From Flavobacteriales bacterium (GTDB lineage: Bacteria; Bacteroidota; Bacteroidia; Flavobacteriales; Flavobacteriaceae): a DNA stretch of 50,146 nt. The stretch lies in the NCBI GenBank assembly GCA_027065715.1, contig JAMONO010000027.1, positions 1 to 50,146 of the forward strand. The letters run 5' to 3'. A model generated the notes under the pieces. It saw only the letters and a program-made list of their open reading frames with translations, made no database searches and had not been told where the DNA came from. Positions 38 through 28,001 of the stretch are shown here, one piece after another. The number at the start of each line of letters is the position of its first letter. Positions within the stretch are counted from its first letter, which is position 1. A program made the translations under genes and the position numbers.

Positions 38-1432
38 ATGATAAAACAAAAAACTTTAAAAAAACCGGTATCTATTGAAGGAGTGGGTTTACATACCGGC
101 AAAAAGGTAACCATGACGCTTAAACCAGCACCCGAAAATTACGGTTTTAAGTTTGTAAGAGTGGACCTGGAAGGAAAACCCGAAATTGAAGCCAGTGCCC
201 AGTTTGTTACCAAAACACAAAGAGGAACCGTATTGGAAAAAAACGGCGTGCAAGTAAGCACTACCGAACACGTACTGGCAGCCTTAACCGGCATGGACAT
301 TGATAACTGCATGATTGAACTTAATGCAGGAGAACCCCCCATTAAAGACGGTTCAGCCAAGTATTTTGTCAAAATGATTGAAGAAGCCGGAATTGAAGAA
401 CAAGATGCCGAACGCGAAGAATTTGTTATCAAAAAAGTTATATCATACGTAGATCCCGAAACCGAAAGCGAAATATTAATTATGCCGTCCGACCATTATG
501 AAATTACTGCCATGGTCGATTTTGGAACCAAGGTGTTGGGCACTCAAAATGCATATTTAAAGGAATTAAAAGACTTTAAAAAAGAAATAGCTTCGGCAAG
601 AACTTTTAGTTTTTTGCACGAATTGGAAATGTTACTTAAAAACGGGCTCATCAAAGGAGGAGACTTGAGCAATGCCATTATTTTTGTCGATAAAGAAATA
701 TCGAACGAGACCAAAGAACTCTTAAAAGAATATTTCAAACAAGATGATTTTGAAGTAAAACCCAACGGAATTCTAAACAATCTCGATTTGCAATGGCCCA
801 ATGAAGCCGCCCGACATAAATTGCTCGATGTAATAGGCGATTTGGCACTGGTAGGTACCAAATTGCGCGGTAAAGTTATAGCCAACAAGCCCGGACACAA
901 AGTAAATACGGCTTTTGCCAAAAAATTGCAAAAAATTATCAAAAACGAAAAAAGAAATAAAGTACCCGAGTTCGATTTAAATCAACCTCCGTTGATGGAT
1001 ATTGAAAAAATCATGTCACTTCTACCCCACCGTCCCCCGTTTTTGTTGGTAGATAGAATTTTGGAACTGTCCGACAATCATGTTGTAGGAATGAAAAATG
1101 TAACCATGAATGAAGCTTTCTTTGTAGGACATTTTCCCGGAGCACCGGTTATGCCCGGAGTTTTGCAAGTTGAGGCAATGGCTCAAACCGGCGGTATATT
1201 GGTATTGAGCTCAGTACCCGACCCTCAAAATTATTTGACTTATTTTATGAAAATGGATAAAGTCAAATTCAAAAGAAAAGTTATGCCCGGCGATACTTTG
1301 ATTTTTAAAGCCGAATTGATATCACCTATTCGAAGAGGAATTTGTCACATGCAAGCTTATGCGTATGCCAATGGACACCTGGTAGCCGAAGCCGAAATGA
1401 TGGCACAAATAGTAAAAAAGGAAAATAAATAA
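38..1432 (+). CDS. lpxC-fabZ: Bifunctional UDP-3-O-acyl-N-acetylglucosamine deacetylase / 3-hydroxyacyl-ACP dehydratase
   Basis: N-terminal LpxC motifs (SIEGVGLHTGKKV, TEHVLAALTGMDIDNC) fused to C-terminal FabZ (LLPHRPPFLLVDRI, GHFPGAPVMPGVLQVEAMAQ). Confidence 0.97.
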   Translation: MIKQKTLKKPVSIEGVGLHTGKKVTMTLKPAPENYGFKFVRVDLEGKPEIEASAQFVTKTQRGTVLEKNGVQVSTTEHVLAALTGMDIDNCMIELNAGEPPIKDGSAKYFVKMIEEAGIEEQDAEREEFVIKKVISYVDPETESEILIMPSDHYEITAMVDFGTKVLGTQNAYLKELKDFKKEIASARTFSFLHELEMLLKNGLIKGGDLSNAIIFVDKEISNETKELLKEYFKQDDFEVKPNGILNNLDLQWPNEAARHKLLDVIGDLALVGTKLRGKVIANKPGHKVNTAFAKKLQKIIKNEKRNKVPEFDLNQPPLMDIEKIMSLLPHRPPFLLVDRILELSDNHVVGMKNVTMNEAFFVGHFPGAPVMPGVLQVEAMAQTGGILVLSSVPDPQNYLTYFMKMDKVKFKRKVMPGDTLIFKAELISPIRRGICHMQAYAYANGHLVAEAEMMAQIVKKENK

Positions 1433-1436
1433 ATAT

Positions 1437-2222
1437 ATGAATCAACCATTTGCATACATACACCCCGAAGCCAAAATAGCCAAAAACGTGGTTATTGAAC
1501 CCTTTGTTACCATCGACAAAGGAGTTGAAATAGGAGAAGGCACTTGGATAGGTCCCAATGTAACTATCATGGAAGGTGCTCGCATAGGAAAAAATTGCAA
1601 AATTTTTCCGGGTACTGTAATAGCCGCCGAACCGCAAGACTTAAAATTTGAAGGTGAAGAATCATTGGCTATAATTGGCGACAATACAACTATTCGCGAA
1701 AATGTAACCGTAAACAGAGGCACCAAAGCAAGTGGCAAAACCATAGTAGGCAACTACTGTTTGCTTATGGCTAATGCACATGTAGCTCACGATTGTGTAG
1801 TAGGTGATCATGCTATTCTGGTCAATAATGTAGCTCTGGCAGGACATGTCGAAATCGGTGAATGGGCTATTTTGGGAGGTCTGTCGGCTGTGCATCAATT
1901 TGTCAAAATTGGACGACATGTTATGGTATCGGGCGGAACCTTAGTCAGAAAAGATATTCCCCCTTTTGTAAAAGCTGCCAAAGAACCTATTCAATACGTC
2001 GGTGTCAATTCAATAGGACTAAGACGTCGCGGTTTTATGAGTGAAACCATCAACCAAATTCAAGATATTTATCGGGTCATTTTTCAAAAAGTAAACAATG
2101 TTTCTGCTGCTTTGGAAATGATTGAAGCCGAAATGCCCGCTTCTCCCGAAAGAGACGAAATTATTCTCTTTATCAAAAATTCACCAAGAGGCATCATTAA
2201 AGGATATAAACAAAAAATATAA
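1437..2222 (+). CDS. lpxA: Acyl-ACP--UDP-N-acetylglucosamine O-acyltransferase
   Basis: Left-handed beta-helix hexapeptide repeats, GLRRRGF motif, position after lpxC-fabZ. Confidence 0.96.
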   Translation: MNQPFAYIHPEAKIAKNVVIEPFVTIDKGVEIGEGTWIGPNVTIMEGARIGKNCKIFPGTVIAAEPQDLKFEGEESLAIIGDNTTIRENVTVNRGTKASGKTIVGNYCLLMANAHVAHDCVVGDHAILVNNVALAGHVEIGEWAILGGLSAVHQFVKIGRHVMVSGGTLVRKDIPPFVKAAKEPIQYVGVNSIGLRRRGFMSETINQIQDIYRVIFQKVNNVSAALEMIEAEMPASPERDEIILFIKNSPRGIIKGYKQKI

Positions 2223-2226
2223 TATT

Positions 2227-2790
2227 ATGGCAACAACCTCAGATATCAGAAAAGGACTTTGTATCAATTACAATAACGATATTTATAAAATTATCGATTT
2301 TTTACATGTAAAACCCGGCAAAGGACCGGCTTTTGTCCGAACCAAACTCAAAAGTCTGACAACAGGAAAAATAATTGACAATACTTTTTCTGCCGGACAC
2401 AAAATAGATGATATAAGAATAGAAACTCGTAAGTTTCAATACTTGTATAATGACGGCGATACCTATCATTTTATGGACGACGAAACTTATGAACAAATTC
2501 AATTGCCCAAAGCAATGATAGATGCCCCTCAATTTTTAAAAGAAGGCGAACTGGTAACCATACTTATCAAAGCCGACGACAATACACCATTAACCTTGGA
2601 AATGCCTGCCAGTGTCGTTATGGAAGTAACCCATACCGAACCCGGTGTAAAAGGCAATACCGCTACCAATGCCACAAAACCTGCAACTGTCGAAACAGGA
2701 GCAACCGTGAGAGTTCCACTGTTTATAAACGAAGGTGATAAAATAAAAATTAACACAGAAACCGGTGAATATCAAGAAAGAGTAAAATAA
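2227..2790 (+). CDS. efp: Elongation factor P (internal ATG of the 2122 ORF)
   Basis: MATTSDIRKGLCINYNNDIYKIIDFLHVKPGKGPAFVRTKLK; start at 2227 removes the overlap with lpxA. Confidence 0.95.
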   Translation: MATTSDIRKGLCINYNNDIYKIIDFLHVKPGKGPAFVRTKLKSLTTGKIIDNTFSAGHKIDDIRIETRKFQYLYNDGDTYHFMDDETYEQIQLPKAMIDAPQFLKEGELVTILIKADDNTPLTLEMPASVVMEVTHTEPGVKGNTATNATKPATVETGATVRVPLFINEGDKIKINTETGEYQERVK

Positions 2791-2792
2791 TT

Positions 2793-2815
2793 TGACAAAA
2801 AATGATATTTTGTCA
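2793..2815. promoter_or_regulatory. Perfect inverted repeat TGACAAAA-N7-TTTTGTCA between efp and sucD
   Basis: Read directly; 8-bp perfect arms, no following T tract. Confidence 0.4.
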
Positions 2816-2865
2816 TAAAATTATTCGACAAATTATTTGATATTTACGAACAAAAAATTATAAAT

Positions 2866-3741
2866 ATGAGTGTATTAGTAAATAAAGATTCCAAGATTAT
2901 AGTGCAAGGTTTTACCGGTGGTGAAGGAACTTTTCATGCCCAACAAATGATTGACTACGGAACCAACGTTGTTGGTGGGGTTACTCCCGGAAAAGGAGGA
3001 CAAGAGCATCTGGGCAAACCGGTTTTCAATACCGTTAAAGAAGCCGTTGAAACAACCGGAGCGGATACTTCCATTATTTTTGTTCCGCCGGCTTTTGCTG
3101 CCGATGCCATTAAAGAAGCTGCCGAAGCAGGTATTAAAACCATTATAGCCATAACCGAAGGTATTCCGGTTGCCGATATGGTCAAAGTAATGGATTATAT
3201 CGATGACAAAGATGTGCGTTTGGTTGGACCAAACTGCCCCGGCGTTATCACGCCCGAAGAAGCCAAAGTAGGTATTATGCCCGGTTTTGTATTTAAAAAA
3301 GGTAAAATCGGTTTGGTTTCCAAATCGGGAACTTTGACTTATGAAGCTGCCGACCAAATTGCCAAACAAGGATTAGGTATTACAACAGCAATAGGTATCG
3401 GAGGAGACCCTATTATAGGAACTACTACCAAAGATGCCGTTGAAATGTTTATGAATGATCCTGATACAGAAGCAATAGTAATGATTGGAGAGATAGGCGG
3501 TAACTTGGAAGCCGAAGCAGCCAAATATATCAAAGAAACAGGCAACAAAAAACCTGTTATAGCTTTTATAGCCGGTCAAACCGCTCCCAAAGGAAGAACC
3601 ATGGGACATGCAGGAGCCATTGTCGGAGGTAAAGCCGATACGGCACAAGCCAAAATGGAAATTTTAAGAGCTCACGGAATCCATGTAGTTGAATCACCTG
3701 CCGAAATCGGTAAAAAAGTAGCAAAAGTTCTTAATAAATGA
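2866..3741 (+). CDS. sucD: Succinyl-CoA synthetase alpha subunit
   Basis: [52 protein letters not shown]. Confidence 0.96.
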
Positions 3742-3807: not shown

Positions 3808-5955
3808 TTATTTTTCGTTATTATTCGCTCTTTTGTTTTTACGAGGAGGGCGGGGTAATAAAACTTTTCGAGATAATTTCATTTTACCTCTGTCCATTCC
3901 CAACAATTTTACTTTGACCGTATCACCTTCTTTTAATACATCGGATACATTGTTGATGCGTTTCCAATCAATTTCGGACACATGCAAAAGTCCTTCCGTT
4001 CCGGGAGCAATTTCTATAAATGCACCAAAATCTTTAATGGAAACAACTTTACCTTCATATATTTCGCCAACTTCGGGTTCAAAAGTTATTACATCAATAC
4101 GGTCTATAACTTGTTGAATCTTATCCATGTCAGTTCCCATAATCTCAATAATTCCTTTACCGTCCACTTCTTCTATAACAATGGTAGTGTCGGTTTCTTC
4201 TTGAAGTTGTTGGATATCTTTACCGCCTTTGCCGATTACGGCACCAATATATTCTTTTGGTATTTCTATTTTGACCATTTTAGGCACAAAATCTTTAACT
4301 TGCGGTCGTGGTTCCGAAATGGTTTTCTCCATTTCACGCATAATATGCAAACGTCCTTCTTTGGCTTGATGCAAGGCTTTTTCAAGGATTTCTCTTTTTA
4401 AGTCCTTAATTTTGATGTCCATTTGACAAGCCGTTATACCGTCTTTGGTTCCCGTTACTTTAAAATCCATATCACCCAAATGATCTTCATCTCCCAAAAT
4501 ATCGGATAATACGGCATATTTTTTGGTTTCTTCGTCATAAATTAAGCCCATGGCAATACCCGATACGGCTTTTTTCATTTGGATACCGGCATCCATAAGT
4601 GCCATTGAACCGGCACAAACTGTTGCCATGGAACTGGACCCGTTCGATTCCAAAATATCGGAAACAACACGTATGGTATAAGGCGAATCTTCGGGAACCA
4701 TAGGTTCAAGAGCTCTTTGTGCCAAATGACCGTGTCCGATTTCTCTTCGCGATGTGCCTCTTAATGGACGTGCTTCACCGGTTGAAAATGGAGGAAAATT
4801 GTAGTGCAAGTAAAAACTTTCTTCGTCTGATTGGGTAGCTCCGTCAATAATATTTACTTCTCGCGAAGTTCCAAGCGTAACGGTTGCCAAAGCTTGTGTT
4901 TCACCACGCGTAAAAATAGCTGACCCGTGAACCGAAGGCAAATAATCGGTTTCGGTCCAAATAGGTCTGATTTCGTCGGTTTTTCTTCCGTCCAATCTCA
5001 AACCTTCGTTGAGAATTAAGTCTCTGACGGCTTTTTTCATTACTTTGTGAAAATATTCACCAATTATTTTTTCTTTTTCTTCCAACTCTTCTTCCGAAAA
5101 AGTTTCTATCAGTTCGTCTTTTACGGCATTAAATTTTTCGGAACGTTCTTTTTTTCCGGTTCCTTCTTTGGCTATGTTGTAAATTTTGTCGTAAACGGAT
5201 TTTTCAATTTGTTCATACAAAGCTTCGTCTTCTTCGGCTTTTGGATAGTCTCTTTTAGGAAAAGCTTTGCTTACTTGTTCAGCCAATTTTTTTTGAACTT
5301 CAATTTGTTTTTTAATGGCTTGATGGGCAAATTCAATAGCTTCAATCATTTCTTCTTCACTGACTTCTTGCATCTGTCCTTCAACCATGGTAACCGAATC
5401 TTCGGTGCCGCCGACCATTAAATCTATCGTAGCTTTTTCGCCTTCTTCATAACTGGGATTAATGACCAATATGTCGTCAATTTTTGCAACCCGCACTTCT
5501 GATATGGGACCTTCAAAAGGTATATCCGAGACTGCCAAAGCTGCCGAAGCGGCTAAACCGGCAAGTGAGTCGGCTTGCACATTGGGGTCGTGCGACATTA
5601 ATTGAATCATTACTTGTGTTTCGGCGTGATAATCTTTAGGAAAGAGCGGACGCAATACGCGATCTACCAGTCGCATAACCAAAATTTCTTCGGTGCTCGG
5701 TCTTCCTTCTCTTTTAAAAAAACCACCGGGGAACTTGCCTGATGAGGCAAATTTTTCGCGGTAATCAACGGTTAAAGGTAAAAAATCAATATCCGGATTT
5801 ATTTCTTTTGAAGCTACGGCTGTTGCCAAAAGCATGGTATTTCCCATTCTTACTACTACGGAACCATCGGCTTGTTTGGCTAACTTTCCGGTTTCAATAC
5901 TGATGGTTCTGCCATCGTCAAGTTGTATGGTTTCTTTGATTGGTTTTGGTGTCAT
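3808..5955 (-). CDS. pnp: Polyribonucleotide nucleotidyltransferase
   Basis: Two RNase PH domains, KH ([16 protein letters not shown]) and S1 ([32 protein letters not shown]). Confidence 0.97.
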
Positions 5956-5977
5956 ATATAATAATTTGTTTTGTAGT

Positions 5978-5995
5978 TCAGTTTGATTAAACTGA
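5978..5995 (-). promoter_or_regulatory. Hairpin in the pnp leader (7-bp stem)
   Basis: TCAGTTT-gatt-AAACTGA on the + strand, about 23 nt upstream of the pnp start. Confidence 0.35.
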
Positions 5996-6009
5996 TAAAA
6001 ATAAGATAA

Positions 6010-6035
6010 AAAAAGGGCAGTTGCCTGCCCTTTTT
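6010..6035 (-). terminator. Intrinsic terminator after rpsO, in the rpsO-pnp interval
   Basis: AAAAAGGGCAG-ttgc-CTGCCCTTTTT, 11-bp stem. Confidence 0.75.
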
Positions 6036-6047
6036 AAATGGTTAAGC

Positions 6048-6317
6048 TTATTTTCTTAAGCCTAATTCTTTAATGATTTTACGGTATCTTTCAATATCGT
6101 TGTTCTTCAAATAGTTTAAAAGACTACGTCTTTTTCCTACTAATTTTACTAAAGCTTTTTCGGTGCTGTAGTCGTGTTTGTTTCTTTTTAAATGTTCGGT
6201 CAAATGGTTGATGCGGTAAGTAAATAACGCAATTTGACCTTCGGGTGATCCTGTGTCTTTTTCTGATTTCCCGTACTTTGCAAAGATTTCTTTTTTTACT
6301 TCTGGTGTTAAATACAT
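6048..6317 (-). CDS. rpsO: 30S ribosomal protein S15
   Basis: [50 protein letters not shown]. Confidence 0.97.
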
Positions 6318-6358
6318 GCCAATATTTTTTTAATGATTATTATGTATATTTCAAGCTG

Positions 6359-6388
6359 CAAAGATACAATAAATTTATTATAAAACAA
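6359..6388 (-). promoter_or_regulatory. Bacteroidetes-type promoter of rpsO
   Basis: Minus strand reads TTG-N19-TATCTTTG, matching the -33/-7 consensus (TTG N17-23 TAnnTTTG). Confidence 0.6.
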
Positions 6389-6415
6389 GATTTTAGTCGG
6401 TTTTAGTTTTTCTGC

Positions 6416-7510
6416 TTATTTGTCAATAGCTTTAATGATAATGATGTATGTAGGAAAATGGTCACTGTATCCGCCCAAAAATTCTCCACCGGCAAATGTT
6501 CGTTTCGGATATCCTTTGTAACGACCTTTTTTGTTTTTCATAAATTCGCGACTGTATATGCCCGATTTCCAAAGATGAAATTTGTTATCCGAATCATTCA
6601 CTAAGGCGGGGGTTATCATTATTTGGTCAAACAAATTCCAACTGTCGCGGTATGCCAATGTGCCAATACCTCGATTAAAAAAGTGTTCCATGGCATTGTA
6701 AAGGCTGCCTTTGTTTACATCGGATTTTTTGGCTTTGGTGTTTAAAACCCGTTTGACACTGGGGCTACTCGGATCGTCGTTCAGGTCGCCCATAATTACA
6801 ATTTTAGCCTTAGGTTCTTGTGCCAAAATAGAATCTTTGATATGTTTGGTTAGTTTGGCGGCTTTAACCCGTTTGGGCAAACTGCGGGCTTCACCTCCTC
6901 GACGCGAAGGCCAGTGGTCCACGATAATACTGATGAGTTCACCGTCCATAATTCCCGTTACAACCAATTGGTCACGAGTGTAAATTCTGTATCCGGTGTC
7001 GCTGTCACGTAAATACAAAGGATAGGTGGTGAAATTTACCGGATTAAAAATCTTTTTTCGATACAAGAGTGCTACATCAATACCGCGTCGATCGGGCGAA
7101 TCAAAATGGATTATGCCGTATCCCAAACCTTTTAAATCGCCGGTAGTTATCAGGTCTTCCAATACTTTTTTGTTTTCTACTTCGGCAACGCCTATGACTG
7201 CCGGGGGGGCATGGGTTTCGCGTTTGCCTATATCAGCTAATACTTTGGACAGGTTATTCAATTTTATATGATATTTTTTAGAAGTCCAATTGTTACGTCC
7301 TTCGGGGGTAAAATCTTCATCTCTTGTTTTGGGGTCGTCAATGGTGTCAAAAAGATTTTCCAAATTGTAAAAAGCAATGGTTCTGGCCAAATATTTTTTT
7401 ACTTCTTTGGTTTGTCGCTGGTTGGTTCGGGCGGTTGTCGTTGTATTTTTTTGACTGCCGCAGTTCCATACTAAAACGGCTAAAATCAAGCCTATAAAAA
7501 CTTTCTTCAT
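6416..7510 (-). CDS. Endonuclease/exonuclease/phosphatase family protein, probable lipoprotein
   Basis: AFYNLENLFDTIDDP, GVAEVENKKVLEDL, VDHWPSRRGG, IVIMGDLNDDPSSPS, SDHFP; N-terminal hydrophobic segment ending in Cys. Confidence 0.85.
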   Translation of the reverse strand: MKKVFIGLILAVLVWNCGSQKNTTTTARTNQRQTKEVKKYLARTIAFYNLENLFDTIDDPKTRDEDFTPEGRNNWTSKKYHIKLNNLSKVLADIGKRETHAPPAVIGVAEVENKKVLEDLITTGDLKGLGYGIIHFDSPDRRGIDVALLYRKKIFNPVNFTTYPLYLRDSDTGYRIYTRDQLVVTGIMDGELISIIVDHWPSRRGGEARSLPKRVKAAKLTKHIKDSILAQEPKAKIVIMGDLNDDPSSPSVKRVLNTKAKKSDVNKGSLYNAMEHFFNRGIGTLAYRDSWNLFDQIMITPALVNDSDNKFHLWKSGIYSREFMKNKKGRYKGYPKRTFAGGEFLGGYSDHFPTYIIIIKAIDK

Positions 7511-7625
7511 GGTCTAAAATTTAGTTATCGTTAATTTTTTTATTTTATGACCAAAAATACTAAATTAAGTTTGAAAAATAATGTAAATTTGTTGGAAATA
7601 ATAATCATAAATAAAAAAACGAAAT

Positions 7626-25842: not shown

Positions 25843-26076
25843 GACATAAATATACCAAAATATCATAAATTATTTTAATAATTGTTTAATTTTTTTAATC
25901 TCTCGGATTATTGAGAGGCTTGATTTATTAAAAAAAGGCAAAAAACATTGATTAACAGATTAACTAATACCAAAGACAAACAATAGGAGGATTGATAAAA
26001 ATATCTTATCTTTACCCTCGAAAAGCGTTCATTGAAAAAGTCCATTGAGGTCAAAAAAAACCGAAAAAAAGCATAA

Positions 26077-27048
26077 AGGAGTTATAGATATGGGTTTAAC
26101 GGCATGGAGAAAGATGATGAAGTCAAAGGTGTTGGAAACAGCTTAAATTTTGGTAGCAGAACCATTTACGACCCGAGATTAGGGCGATTTAATTCCGTAG
26201 ATCCACGAGCACGACAATACCCAAGCATGTCGCCTTATGTTTATGCCTCAGACAATCCACTATATTACAATGATGAAGATGGTGAAGGTCCAATACCTTT
26301 TAGATTAAAAGACTTACTTACTGAAAATTCATCTTACCTTACAGGTTTATTGGCAGGAATTGGTGATGGAATAATTGAAACCATAGATTTAGTTGCCGGT
26401 ATGGCACAAACTTCTAATGCTTTTAATCCAATTTTTAATCCCATATTTTTCTTTTCTGATGAAGCCAAAAAAATAAGAAGCGAAGCAATGGAAACAGCCA
26501 AAATGGCTTTAAATGCTTTAACCAATGAAGATTTAAGAAATAAGATTTGGACAAACATCAAAAAAGAATTTGGCGAATGGCTTGACCAAACAACCTTTCA
26601 AGGCACAGCAGCCGAAGCGGGCTACCAACACGGTAAGCTAATTTTTGACGGACTAACGGCACTTGTTGGAGTAAGTGAAGTTAAATACCTGTTAAAAACG
26701 GGTGAGTTCTCTTTAAGTGGAAAGAAATTATTAGGGGTATGGAAAAAGGCAAAAAAGTCGTTTAAAACTGCTGCATTAAATGAATTAAAAAACTTTTTAA
26801 AATTAAATGCAGGAGAATCTATTGATGTTATCAAAAAAAGATTAAAAAGTTCGATAAAATCACACACTAAACAAATAGAGAAACATAAAAAATGGTTAAT
26901 AAATCCTAAATTAAAATATGGTGATAAATGGGATAAATTTTCAGAACAACATAAAAAAAATATAATACACCATTGGAAAGAAGATATTAGAAGAAATAAA
27001 GAATATAAAAAAGTAAAAGAACAGGCATTAAAAGAATTAAATAATTAA
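26077..27048 (+). pseudogene. Orphan RHS repeat-associated core tip with C-terminal candidate toxin domain; ATG ORF 26104-27048
   Basis: After TAA at 26074-26076 the frame reads RSYRYGFNGMEKDDEVKGVGNSLNFGSRTIYDPRLGRFNSVDPRARQYPSMSPYVYASDNPLYYNDEDGE, the RHS core signature; no N-terminal RHS repeats upstream. Confidence 0.8.
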
Positions 27049-27050
27049 AA

Positions 27051-27302
27051 ATGGAAAATACAGATTATAAATTATTATTATTTGAAATAATTTCTGCACT
27101 TAAAGATAAAGCATTATATTTAAAAAATATAAATGCTAATAATTACGATAGCTCATATTATGAAGGTATGAAATTTGCATACCATATTACATTAGATACT
27201 ATAAAAGAATACCTTAATAATTACAGTGTTGATGAAGAAATATTTGGATTAAAAGATTTTGATCCAAAAGAAATTTTGGATTATAAACCAATAAGCAAAT
27301 GA
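27051..27302 (+). CDS. Small acidic protein, candidate immunity protein
   Basis: 83 aa, starts 2 nt after the RHS-CT stop codon, strongly AT-rich. Confidence 0.55.
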   Translation: MENTDYKLLLFEIISALKDKALYLKNINANNYDSSYYEGMKFAYHITLDTIKEYLNNYSVDEEIFGLKDFDPKEILDYKPISK

Positions 27303-27709
27303 AATTATTTGTAACTATAACATTATTAATTTTACAATATATATTATCCGCCCAAAGCGTATATGATGCGTTAATAGAAAAAACGCAAACGGTTGCACAA
27401 TCGCAAGTAATGATAAGTCAAATCTTGTCTTATTATGCCAAACAAAGACCGGATGTACCCCAAAAAGTATGGCAAGAAATACAATCGGAAATTAACTATC
27501 AATCATTTGTAACGGAAGTAAAAGAAATATACCGCCAATATTATACAGAAACCGAAGCGCAAGAAATCATAGATACCATAGACCAATACGGGATAAATGC
27601 CGTTACATATAAACCCGAAATAACAGAAGCAATGTATGAATTGGGCAGAAAATTTGGTAAGCAAATAGGCGAACACGTAAAAGAAAAGTTAAAAGAATTA
27701 GGATATTAA
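27299..27709 (+). CDS. Secreted DUF2059-like protein
   Basis: Signal peptide; YRQYYTETEAQEIIDTIDQYGINAVTYKPEITEAMYELGRKFGKQIGE; ATG overlaps the preceding TGA. Confidence 0.55.
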   Translation: MKLFVTITLLILQYILSAQSVYDALIEKTQTVAQSQVMISQILSYYAKQRPDVPQKVWQEIQSEINYQSFVTEVKEIYRQYYTETEAQEIIDTIDQYGINAVTYKPEITEAMYELGRKFGKQIGEHVKEKLKELGY

Positions 27710-27717
27710 AAAAAAAC

Positions 27718-27753
27718 CGCCCCCAATCCCCAACTATGTTGGGGAGGGAGGGG
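27718..27753. repeat. GC-rich imperfect hairpin with perfect core CCCCAAC-TAT-GTTGGGG
   Basis: GCCCCCAATCCCCAACTATGTTGGGGAGGGAGGGGC, conspicuous in an AT-rich context. Confidence 0.6.
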
Positions 27754-28001
27754 CATATTTTTATTATGAGCTACCCATTTTATCTAAAAAACTTTTACAA
27801 GAGCTTTACGCATCACATAGCATAACACCTCGCCGCTGTCGCTCCTTTACGGGGATTGTATGCTTAGGCACTGTATTACGTTTCAATGGGTATATCTCGA
27901 AGCATAAGGGACGTCGATTTATCGGTCTGTTTTTCTCAAAACTTCGTCATAAAATAGCAAAAAACCCGATAATAAAGTAAAAATATTTTAGTCTAACTGT
28001 C

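What the first reader, a model, noticed from the sequence alone, without database searches (positions are those of the whole stretch)
25900..27900. Orphan RHS tip, candidate toxin, immunity and secreted third gene in an AT-rich island
Seen: a canonical RHS core (YRYGFNGMEKDDEVKG...IYDPRLGRFNSVDP...YVYASDNP) starts directly after an in-frame stop, with no RHS repeats upstream. Downstream is a roughly 200-aa variable tail ending SIKSHTKQIEKHKKWLINPKLKYGDKWDKFSEQHKKNIIHHWKEDIRRNKEYKKVKEQALKELNN. An 83-aa acidic ORF follows after 2 nt, then a secreted DUF2059-like ORF with an overlapping start (ATGA). AT content rises over the distal toxin and the 83-aa gene. Knowledge: polymorphic toxins carry variable C-terminal toxins next to immunity genes, and displaced orphan tips are known in RHS/CDI systems. 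Inference: this is a transferable toxin-immunity cassette, with a secreted third gene as an unusual passenger.
Basis: partly seen in the sequence, partly recalled or inferred. Interest (0 to 1): 0.75.

Follow-up and report, generated by a model that had tools for sequence, protein, structure and literature searches.

The report
Orphan RHS tip with new toxin–immunity pair
A broken-off end of a bacterial weapon protein carries a small, so far unnamed toxin and its antidote gene, and the same toxin-antidote pair turns up on unrelated weapon proteins in very distant bacteria, which makes it a real, mobile warhead of a known kind.

Summary
At 26077-27048 an open frame starts directly after a stop with an RHS core and ends in a toxin-like tail. 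An 83-aa acidic gene and a secreted 136-aa gene follow.

The main prediction passed. The last ~91 aa occur in eight independent loci from Bacteroidota, Chlamydiota, Spirochaetota and Myxococcota. They sit on at least four carrier types, including a full-length 1570-aa RHS protein in another family of the same order (56% identity). A homologue of the 83-aa gene follows directly in 8 of 8. Neither matches Pfam, NCBIfam, PADLOC or a PDB sequence, so this is an uncatalogued toxin-immunity family. AlphaFold2 gives a confident four-helix domain with no PDB fold match.

Two corrections. Residues ~63-206 are not variable: they form a conserved pretoxin linker shared with a non-RHS secreted toxin. The third gene is probably not a random passenger: its three closest relatives all lie in toxin-immunity loci, while weaker DUF2059-type relatives do not.

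Most likely this is a displaced orphan RHS tip: a silent or poorly delivered toxin cassette with immunity. Toxicity and mechanism are untested. The kind is known; the toxin-immunity family and the candidate constant third gene are new.

The parts
26077..26289 (+). RHS-associated core (TIGR03696), opening in frame right after a stop; no RHS repeats upstream
26290..26721 (+). Conserved pretoxin linker (TGLLAGIGDG..ET.DL ... GYQHGKL ... LLKTG.FS), 41% identical to part of a non-RHS secreted toxin carrier in G064; weaker relatives in G111 and G098
26773..27048 (+). Toxin domain of the tip (about 91 aa, all-helical; invariant across 7 loci: I251, S253, I258, H261, P268, K271, W276, W291, I295 of the 314-aa protein)
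   Evidence: low-GC block
26104..27048 (+). Orphan RHS tip ORF as a whole (314 aa from the first ATG)
27051..27302 (+). Cognate immunity gene, 83 aa, acidic; homologue directly downstream of the toxin domain in 8 of 8 loci
27299..27709 (+). Third gene: 136-aa helical protein with a signal-peptide-like N-terminus, distantly DUF2059-like; its three closest relatives are all in toxin-immunity loci
27721..27818 (+). Hairpin/terminator-like repeat just after the operon; 86% identical over 97 bp to the sequence after the immunity gene of another RHS locus (C36) of this genome

Best explanation
[quoted passage not shown] On intact carriers (full-length RHS protein in G542, RHS-HINT protein in Leptospira, TPR protein in Simkania, lipoprotein in Archangium) the domain would be delivered to a neighbouring bacterium, released from the carrier, and act in the cytoplasm. 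The small acidic immunity protein would bind and block it in the producer and its kin (inferred from conserved linkage and charge). In this genome the tip has no delivery part, so the toxin is probably not exported. The locus most likely works as an immunity reserve and as a stored toxin cassette that recombination could attach to a full-length carrier. The toxin's chemistry is inferred only weakly: a nuclease, most likely an RNase using the invariant His261 and Lys271, is my best guess (about 40%). Shown here: domain homology, linkage, modular exchange, composition block, predicted fold. Inferred: toxicity, immunity, delivery, silence of the orphan, and any role of the third gene.
For: RHS core over the curated cut-off. 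Toxin domain plus immunity homologue adjacent in 8 of 8 independent loci: window; G542:C14; G542:C18; G063:C10 (toxin copy broken); Simkania pSn; Leptospira weilii pDO6; Archangium lansinium; a Chlamydiae MAG. The same pair is on a full-length 1570-aa RHS protein, 56% identity for toxin and 51% for immunity. Carriers differ while the cassette is conserved. The low-GC block ends at the same junctions as the homology blocks. Immunity is acidic in all eight; the toxin domain is basic or near neutral. AlphaFold2 pLDDT 97, pTM 0.83, four helices. Orphan Rhs toxin-immunity modules, core recombination and immunity linkage are documented (PMC5727410).
Against: No toxicity or protection data. No catalytic signature or fold match, so the activity is a guess. 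The tip's core has no DNA-level match to the four other RHS loci of this genome (best blastn E 0.27), so re-recruitment by homologous recombination within this genome looks difficult. No full-length RHS carrier was seen in the 50-kb contig, although other RHS loci lie on other, mostly short contigs.
Confidence: 0.85

Rival explanations
1. Decayed RHS remnant: the tip is a neutral relic of a broken rhs gene with no present function beyond, at most, immunity.
For: No start codon keeps the whole core in frame and no delivery region is present. A related copy in G063:C10 is visibly broken.
Against: All three ORFs are intact with tight coupling (2-nt gap, ATGA overlap). The toxin domain keeps every residue that is invariant in the other six aligned loci.
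Confidence: 0.25
2. Self-contained type II toxin-antitoxin module: the orphan tip and the 83-aa protein act inside the same cell rather than as a stored delivery cassette.
For: Compact two-gene arrangement without an export signal on the tip. Rhs elements in Salmonella have been reported to act as type II toxin-antitoxin modules (PMC7043789, title and abstract).
Against: Homologues of the domain sit on carriers with RHS, HINT or lipobox-like features. The toxin comes first and the antidote second, the order of polymorphic toxins.
Confidence: 0.15
3. Third gene as an unrelated passenger that happens to lie next to the cassette.
For: DUF2059-type proteins are ordinary chromosomal genes; ten weaker relatives are not near RHS genes. 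Toxin-immunity pairs in G542, Simkania, Leptospira, Archangium and the Chlamydiae MAG show no such third gene next to them. The pretoxin linker in G111 and G098 also lacks it.
Against: The three best hits with the window protein (E 8e-15, 4e-13, 1.6e-9) are all in toxin-immunity loci, each directly after a small variable gene; the next hit is at 3.5e-4 and is not. With RHS loci covering roughly 1-2% of a genome this is unlikely by chance (rough estimate, not computed on annotated genomes).
Confidence: 0.35

Closest known systems
Orphan Rhs tips (C-terminal displacement; Snodgrassella, Serratia, Salmonella, E. coli)
   Same: Truncated rhs gene with core and toxin domain, cognate immunity gene directly downstream, no delivery part (PMC5727410).
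   Different: Not downstream of a visible parent rhs gene; core unlike the genome's other RHS cores at DNA level; toxin domain of an uncatalogued family; extra conserved linker and secreted third gene.
[quoted passage not shown] 2012, PMC3482391)
   Same: One toxin domain shared among different carriers and phyla, next to its immunity gene.
   Different: Toxin and immunity domains match no Pfam or NCBIfam model; to my knowledge those libraries hold many of the Ntox and Imm families of that survey.
SitBAI of myxobacteria (PMC5562445)
   Same: The Archangium relative has the toxin domain at the C-terminus of a protein with a lipobox-like signal, with immunity downstream; SitBAI also has an accessory gene of unknown role.
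   Different: Window carrier is RHS, not a lipoprotein; the accessory gene is downstream, not upstream, and homology to SitA or SitB was not tested.
DUF2059 proteins (PDB 3OAO)
   Same: Third gene: signal-peptide-like start, all-helical, best PDB fold hit is 3OAO.
   Different: That match is not significant (E 0.98, TM 0.32); Pfam scores are below the cut-off.

Membership tests
RHS polymorphic toxin | RHS-associated core domain above curated cut-off | tested here: met
RHS polymorphic toxin | C-terminal toxin domain exchanged between carriers | tested here: met
   same domain on RHS, RHS-HINT, TPR and lipoprotein-like carriers
RHS polymorphic toxin | Immunity gene directly downstream and co-inherited | tested here: met
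   8 of 8 loci
RHS polymorphic toxin | Toxicity of the domain and neutralisation by the immunity protein | not testable with these tools
   needs bench work
Orphan Rhs tip | No N-terminal delivery region or RHS repeats | tested here: met
   stop just before the core, other-strand gene upstream
Orphan Rhs tip | Core homologous to a full-length rhs gene of the same genome, able to recombine | tested here: inconclusive
   no DNA match to the cores on C36, C20, C99, C39; protein identity only 46-52% to C20 and C36; the genome is a 175-contig draft, so a parent may be missing
Known catalogued toxin family (Pfam/NCBIfam/PDB) | Significant profile, sequence or fold match | tested here: not met
Known catalogued immunity family | Significant profile or sequence match | tested here: not met
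DUF2059 (third gene) | Pfam PF09832 gathering score | tested here: not met
   11.8 bits against 23.6; 3 of 4 relatives match weakly, best E 0.011
DUF2059 (third gene) | Fold like PDB 3OAO | tested here: inconclusive
   rank 1 but E 0.98

The most novel reading that the evidence does not exclude
The loci form a four-part design in one lineage: a constant pretoxin linker on one side, a constant secreted DUF2059-like protein on the other, and a freely exchanged toxin-immunity pair between them. The secreted protein would be a shared working part, for example a periplasmic helper for export or release, or a general envelope-side protector, and the two constant flanks would be the arms for swapping cassettes.
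Probability: 0.35. Interest if true: 0.6.

Novelty: new member of a known kind. Interest (0 to 1): 0.42.

Why it matters
It adds a toxin-immunity family, small enough to express and crystallise, that no Pfam or NCBIfam model covers and that links Bacteroidota with Chlamydiota, Spirochaetota and Myxococcota. It also points to a secreted protein that recurs beside exchanged cassettes, a testable candidate for a general helper of RHS-type toxins in Bacteroidota, whose export is poorly understood.

Tried and rejected
Single-sequence searches with the tail in 150 genus-to-order relatives and ~396 phylum genomes gave only spurious hits (BshC-like, TetR-type, undecaprenyl-synthase-like ORFs); the break came from a weak plasmid hit and profiles built on it. 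First genome-contig scan with the single tail: nothing. Viral contigs and phages: nothing. PDB sequence and fold searches: nothing significant. The Tis1_ImmP match of the third gene (E 0.0014, below cut-off) was seen in only one of four members and dropped. Direct repeats or target-site duplications around the island: only short AT-rich chance matches. Empty-site comparison: in G012 the DUF3667-pdxH-Rrf2 block is conserved, but the gene order breaks on the RHS side, so no clean empty site could be shown. The relative L041 (G288) has two stops and was not counted.

Full report
WHAT IS THERE. The window is one whole contig (G000:C27) of a 2.2-Mb, 175-contig genome. An S15-Flavobacteria leader at 6315-6366 suggests a member of Flavobacteriia. 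At 26077 an open frame starts right after a TAA with an RHS core and runs to 27048. The core scores above the curated cut-off of TIGR03696. An 83-aa ORF follows after 2 nt and a 136-aa ORF overlaps it by ATGA. No RHS repeats lie upstream; the neighbour is a DUF3667 gene on the other strand.

THE TAIL IS A REAL, MOBILE DOMAIN. Single-sequence searches failed in close relatives and in a phylum sample. A weak tblastn hit on the Simkania negevensis plasmid pSn proved to be real: the ORF directly after it is a homologue of the window's 83-aa protein (phmmer E 5.9e-5). From there the same pair was found in Leptospira weilii plasmids, Archangium lansinium and a Chlamydiae MAG, and with a profile in two genomes of the window's own order. 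In all eight independent loci the immunity homologue is directly downstream; in G063 the toxin copy itself is broken.

THE FULL-LENGTH TEST. G542:C14 encodes a 1570-aa RHS protein whose last 91 aa are 56% identical to the window tail, followed by an 88-aa immunity gene 51% identical to the window's, with an ATGA overlap. The sequence between core and toxin aligns poorly in the two proteins, so the clear homology begins at the toxin domain. Directly after it lies another orphan tip with a different tail.

CARRIERS. The domain sits on an RHS tip (window), a full-length RHS protein (G542), an RHS-core plus HINT protein (Leptospira), a TPR protein (Simkania) and a 440-aa protein with a lipobox-like signal in Archangium. 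Exchange of one toxin domain among delivery proteins is the mark of polymorphic toxins (PMC3482391, PMC5562445).

LINKER AND COMPOSITION. Residues ~63-206 of the tip are 41% identical over 144 aa to a region of a 604-aa secreted-looking, non-RHS protein in G064 that ends in a different tail. Weaker relatives are in G111 and G098. This stretch is a conserved pretoxin linker, not a variable tail. GC is 0.39 in the core, 0.36 in the linker, 0.217 in the toxin domain, 0.210 in the immunity gene and 0.32 in the third gene. The homology boundary and the composition boundary agree at about 26720-26775 and at the end of the immunity gene.

TOXIN STRUCTURE AND ACTIVITY. AlphaFold2 on the allowed alignment gives four helices with mean pLDDT 97 and pTM 0.83. 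Nothing in the PDB matches significantly by sequence or fold (best E 0.32, a VanR regulator). Pfam and NCBIfam do not know it. Across seven loci I251, S253, I258, H261, P268, K271, W276, W291 and I295 are invariant. A His/Lys nuclease is my guess; it is not shown. All eight immunity proteins are acidic, pI 4.4-5.0.

THIRD GENE. With the window protein as query, the three best relatives in 120 genomes (E 8e-15, 4e-13, 1.6e-9) are all inside RHS or pretoxin-linker loci and each directly follows a small variable gene. The next hit is an unlinked gene at 3.5e-4. A profile finds ten weaker DUF2059-type proteins (26-58 bits), none near an RHS gene. The profile was trained on the linked four, so only the single-sequence result is independent. 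The gene is absent beside the toxin in G542, Simkania, Leptospira, Archangium and the Chlamydiae MAG, so it goes with the linker/RHS context of some Flavobacteriia-like genomes and not with this toxin. The model is all-helical (pLDDT 89) with PDB 3OAO, a DUF2059 protein, as best but insignificant match.

HOW IT PROBABLY WORKS. Without a delivery region and with no start codon covering the whole core, the tip is probably not exported. Orphan Rhs tips are thought to serve as stores re-recruited by recombination between cores, and some are expressed (PMC5727410). Here the core has no DNA match to the other RHS loci of the genome, whereas the C20 orphan matches the C36 core at 85% over 199 bp. So the window tip looks foreign to those carriers. 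Its most likely present value is immunity against neighbours that carry the same toxin, with the toxin as a reserve.

NOVELTY. The kind is known. New are the toxin-immunity family, its spread over four phyla, the conserved linker and the candidate constant third gene.

Noticed in passing
L008 (G000:C20:1-3828), tip at 701-1753 minus strand, recombinases at 1770-3107: A second orphan RHS tip of this genome lies directly after two tyrosine-recombinase-like ORFs (XerC/D-like by eye), and its core is 85% identical in DNA to the C36 RHS core.
   Followed up: partly
window 27721-27818 and L009 (G000:C36:294-388): A ~97-bp hairpin repeat (86% identical) follows the last gene of both this locus and the C36 RHS locus; 33-bp pieces of it recur on C93 and C130.
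   Followed up: partly
L053 (G542:C18:1-6000): Array of RHS tips with different tails and immunity genes, including a second copy of this toxin domain without an RHS core of its own.
   Followed up: partly
L036 (Simkania negevensis pSn, complement of 127976-132038), 1-1575: The toxin-bearing TPR ORF has no listed gene in the plasmid table, although its immunity gene (SNE_RS00640) is listed; the table is incomplete.
   Followed up: no
L068 (G008:C33), 4953-7544: RHS protein of the same genus whose tail reads like a PD-(D/E)XK nuclease (VVDGIVIKNGKILGFVEAKL, by eye), with the third-gene relative about 2.4 kb downstream.
   Followed up: partly
L102 (G111:C9) and L103 (G098:C16): The pretoxin linker occurs in a 1.7-Mb lineage of the same order, with other toxins and without the third gene; L102 also holds a second partial linker-toxin copy after the first immunity gene.
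   Followed up: partly
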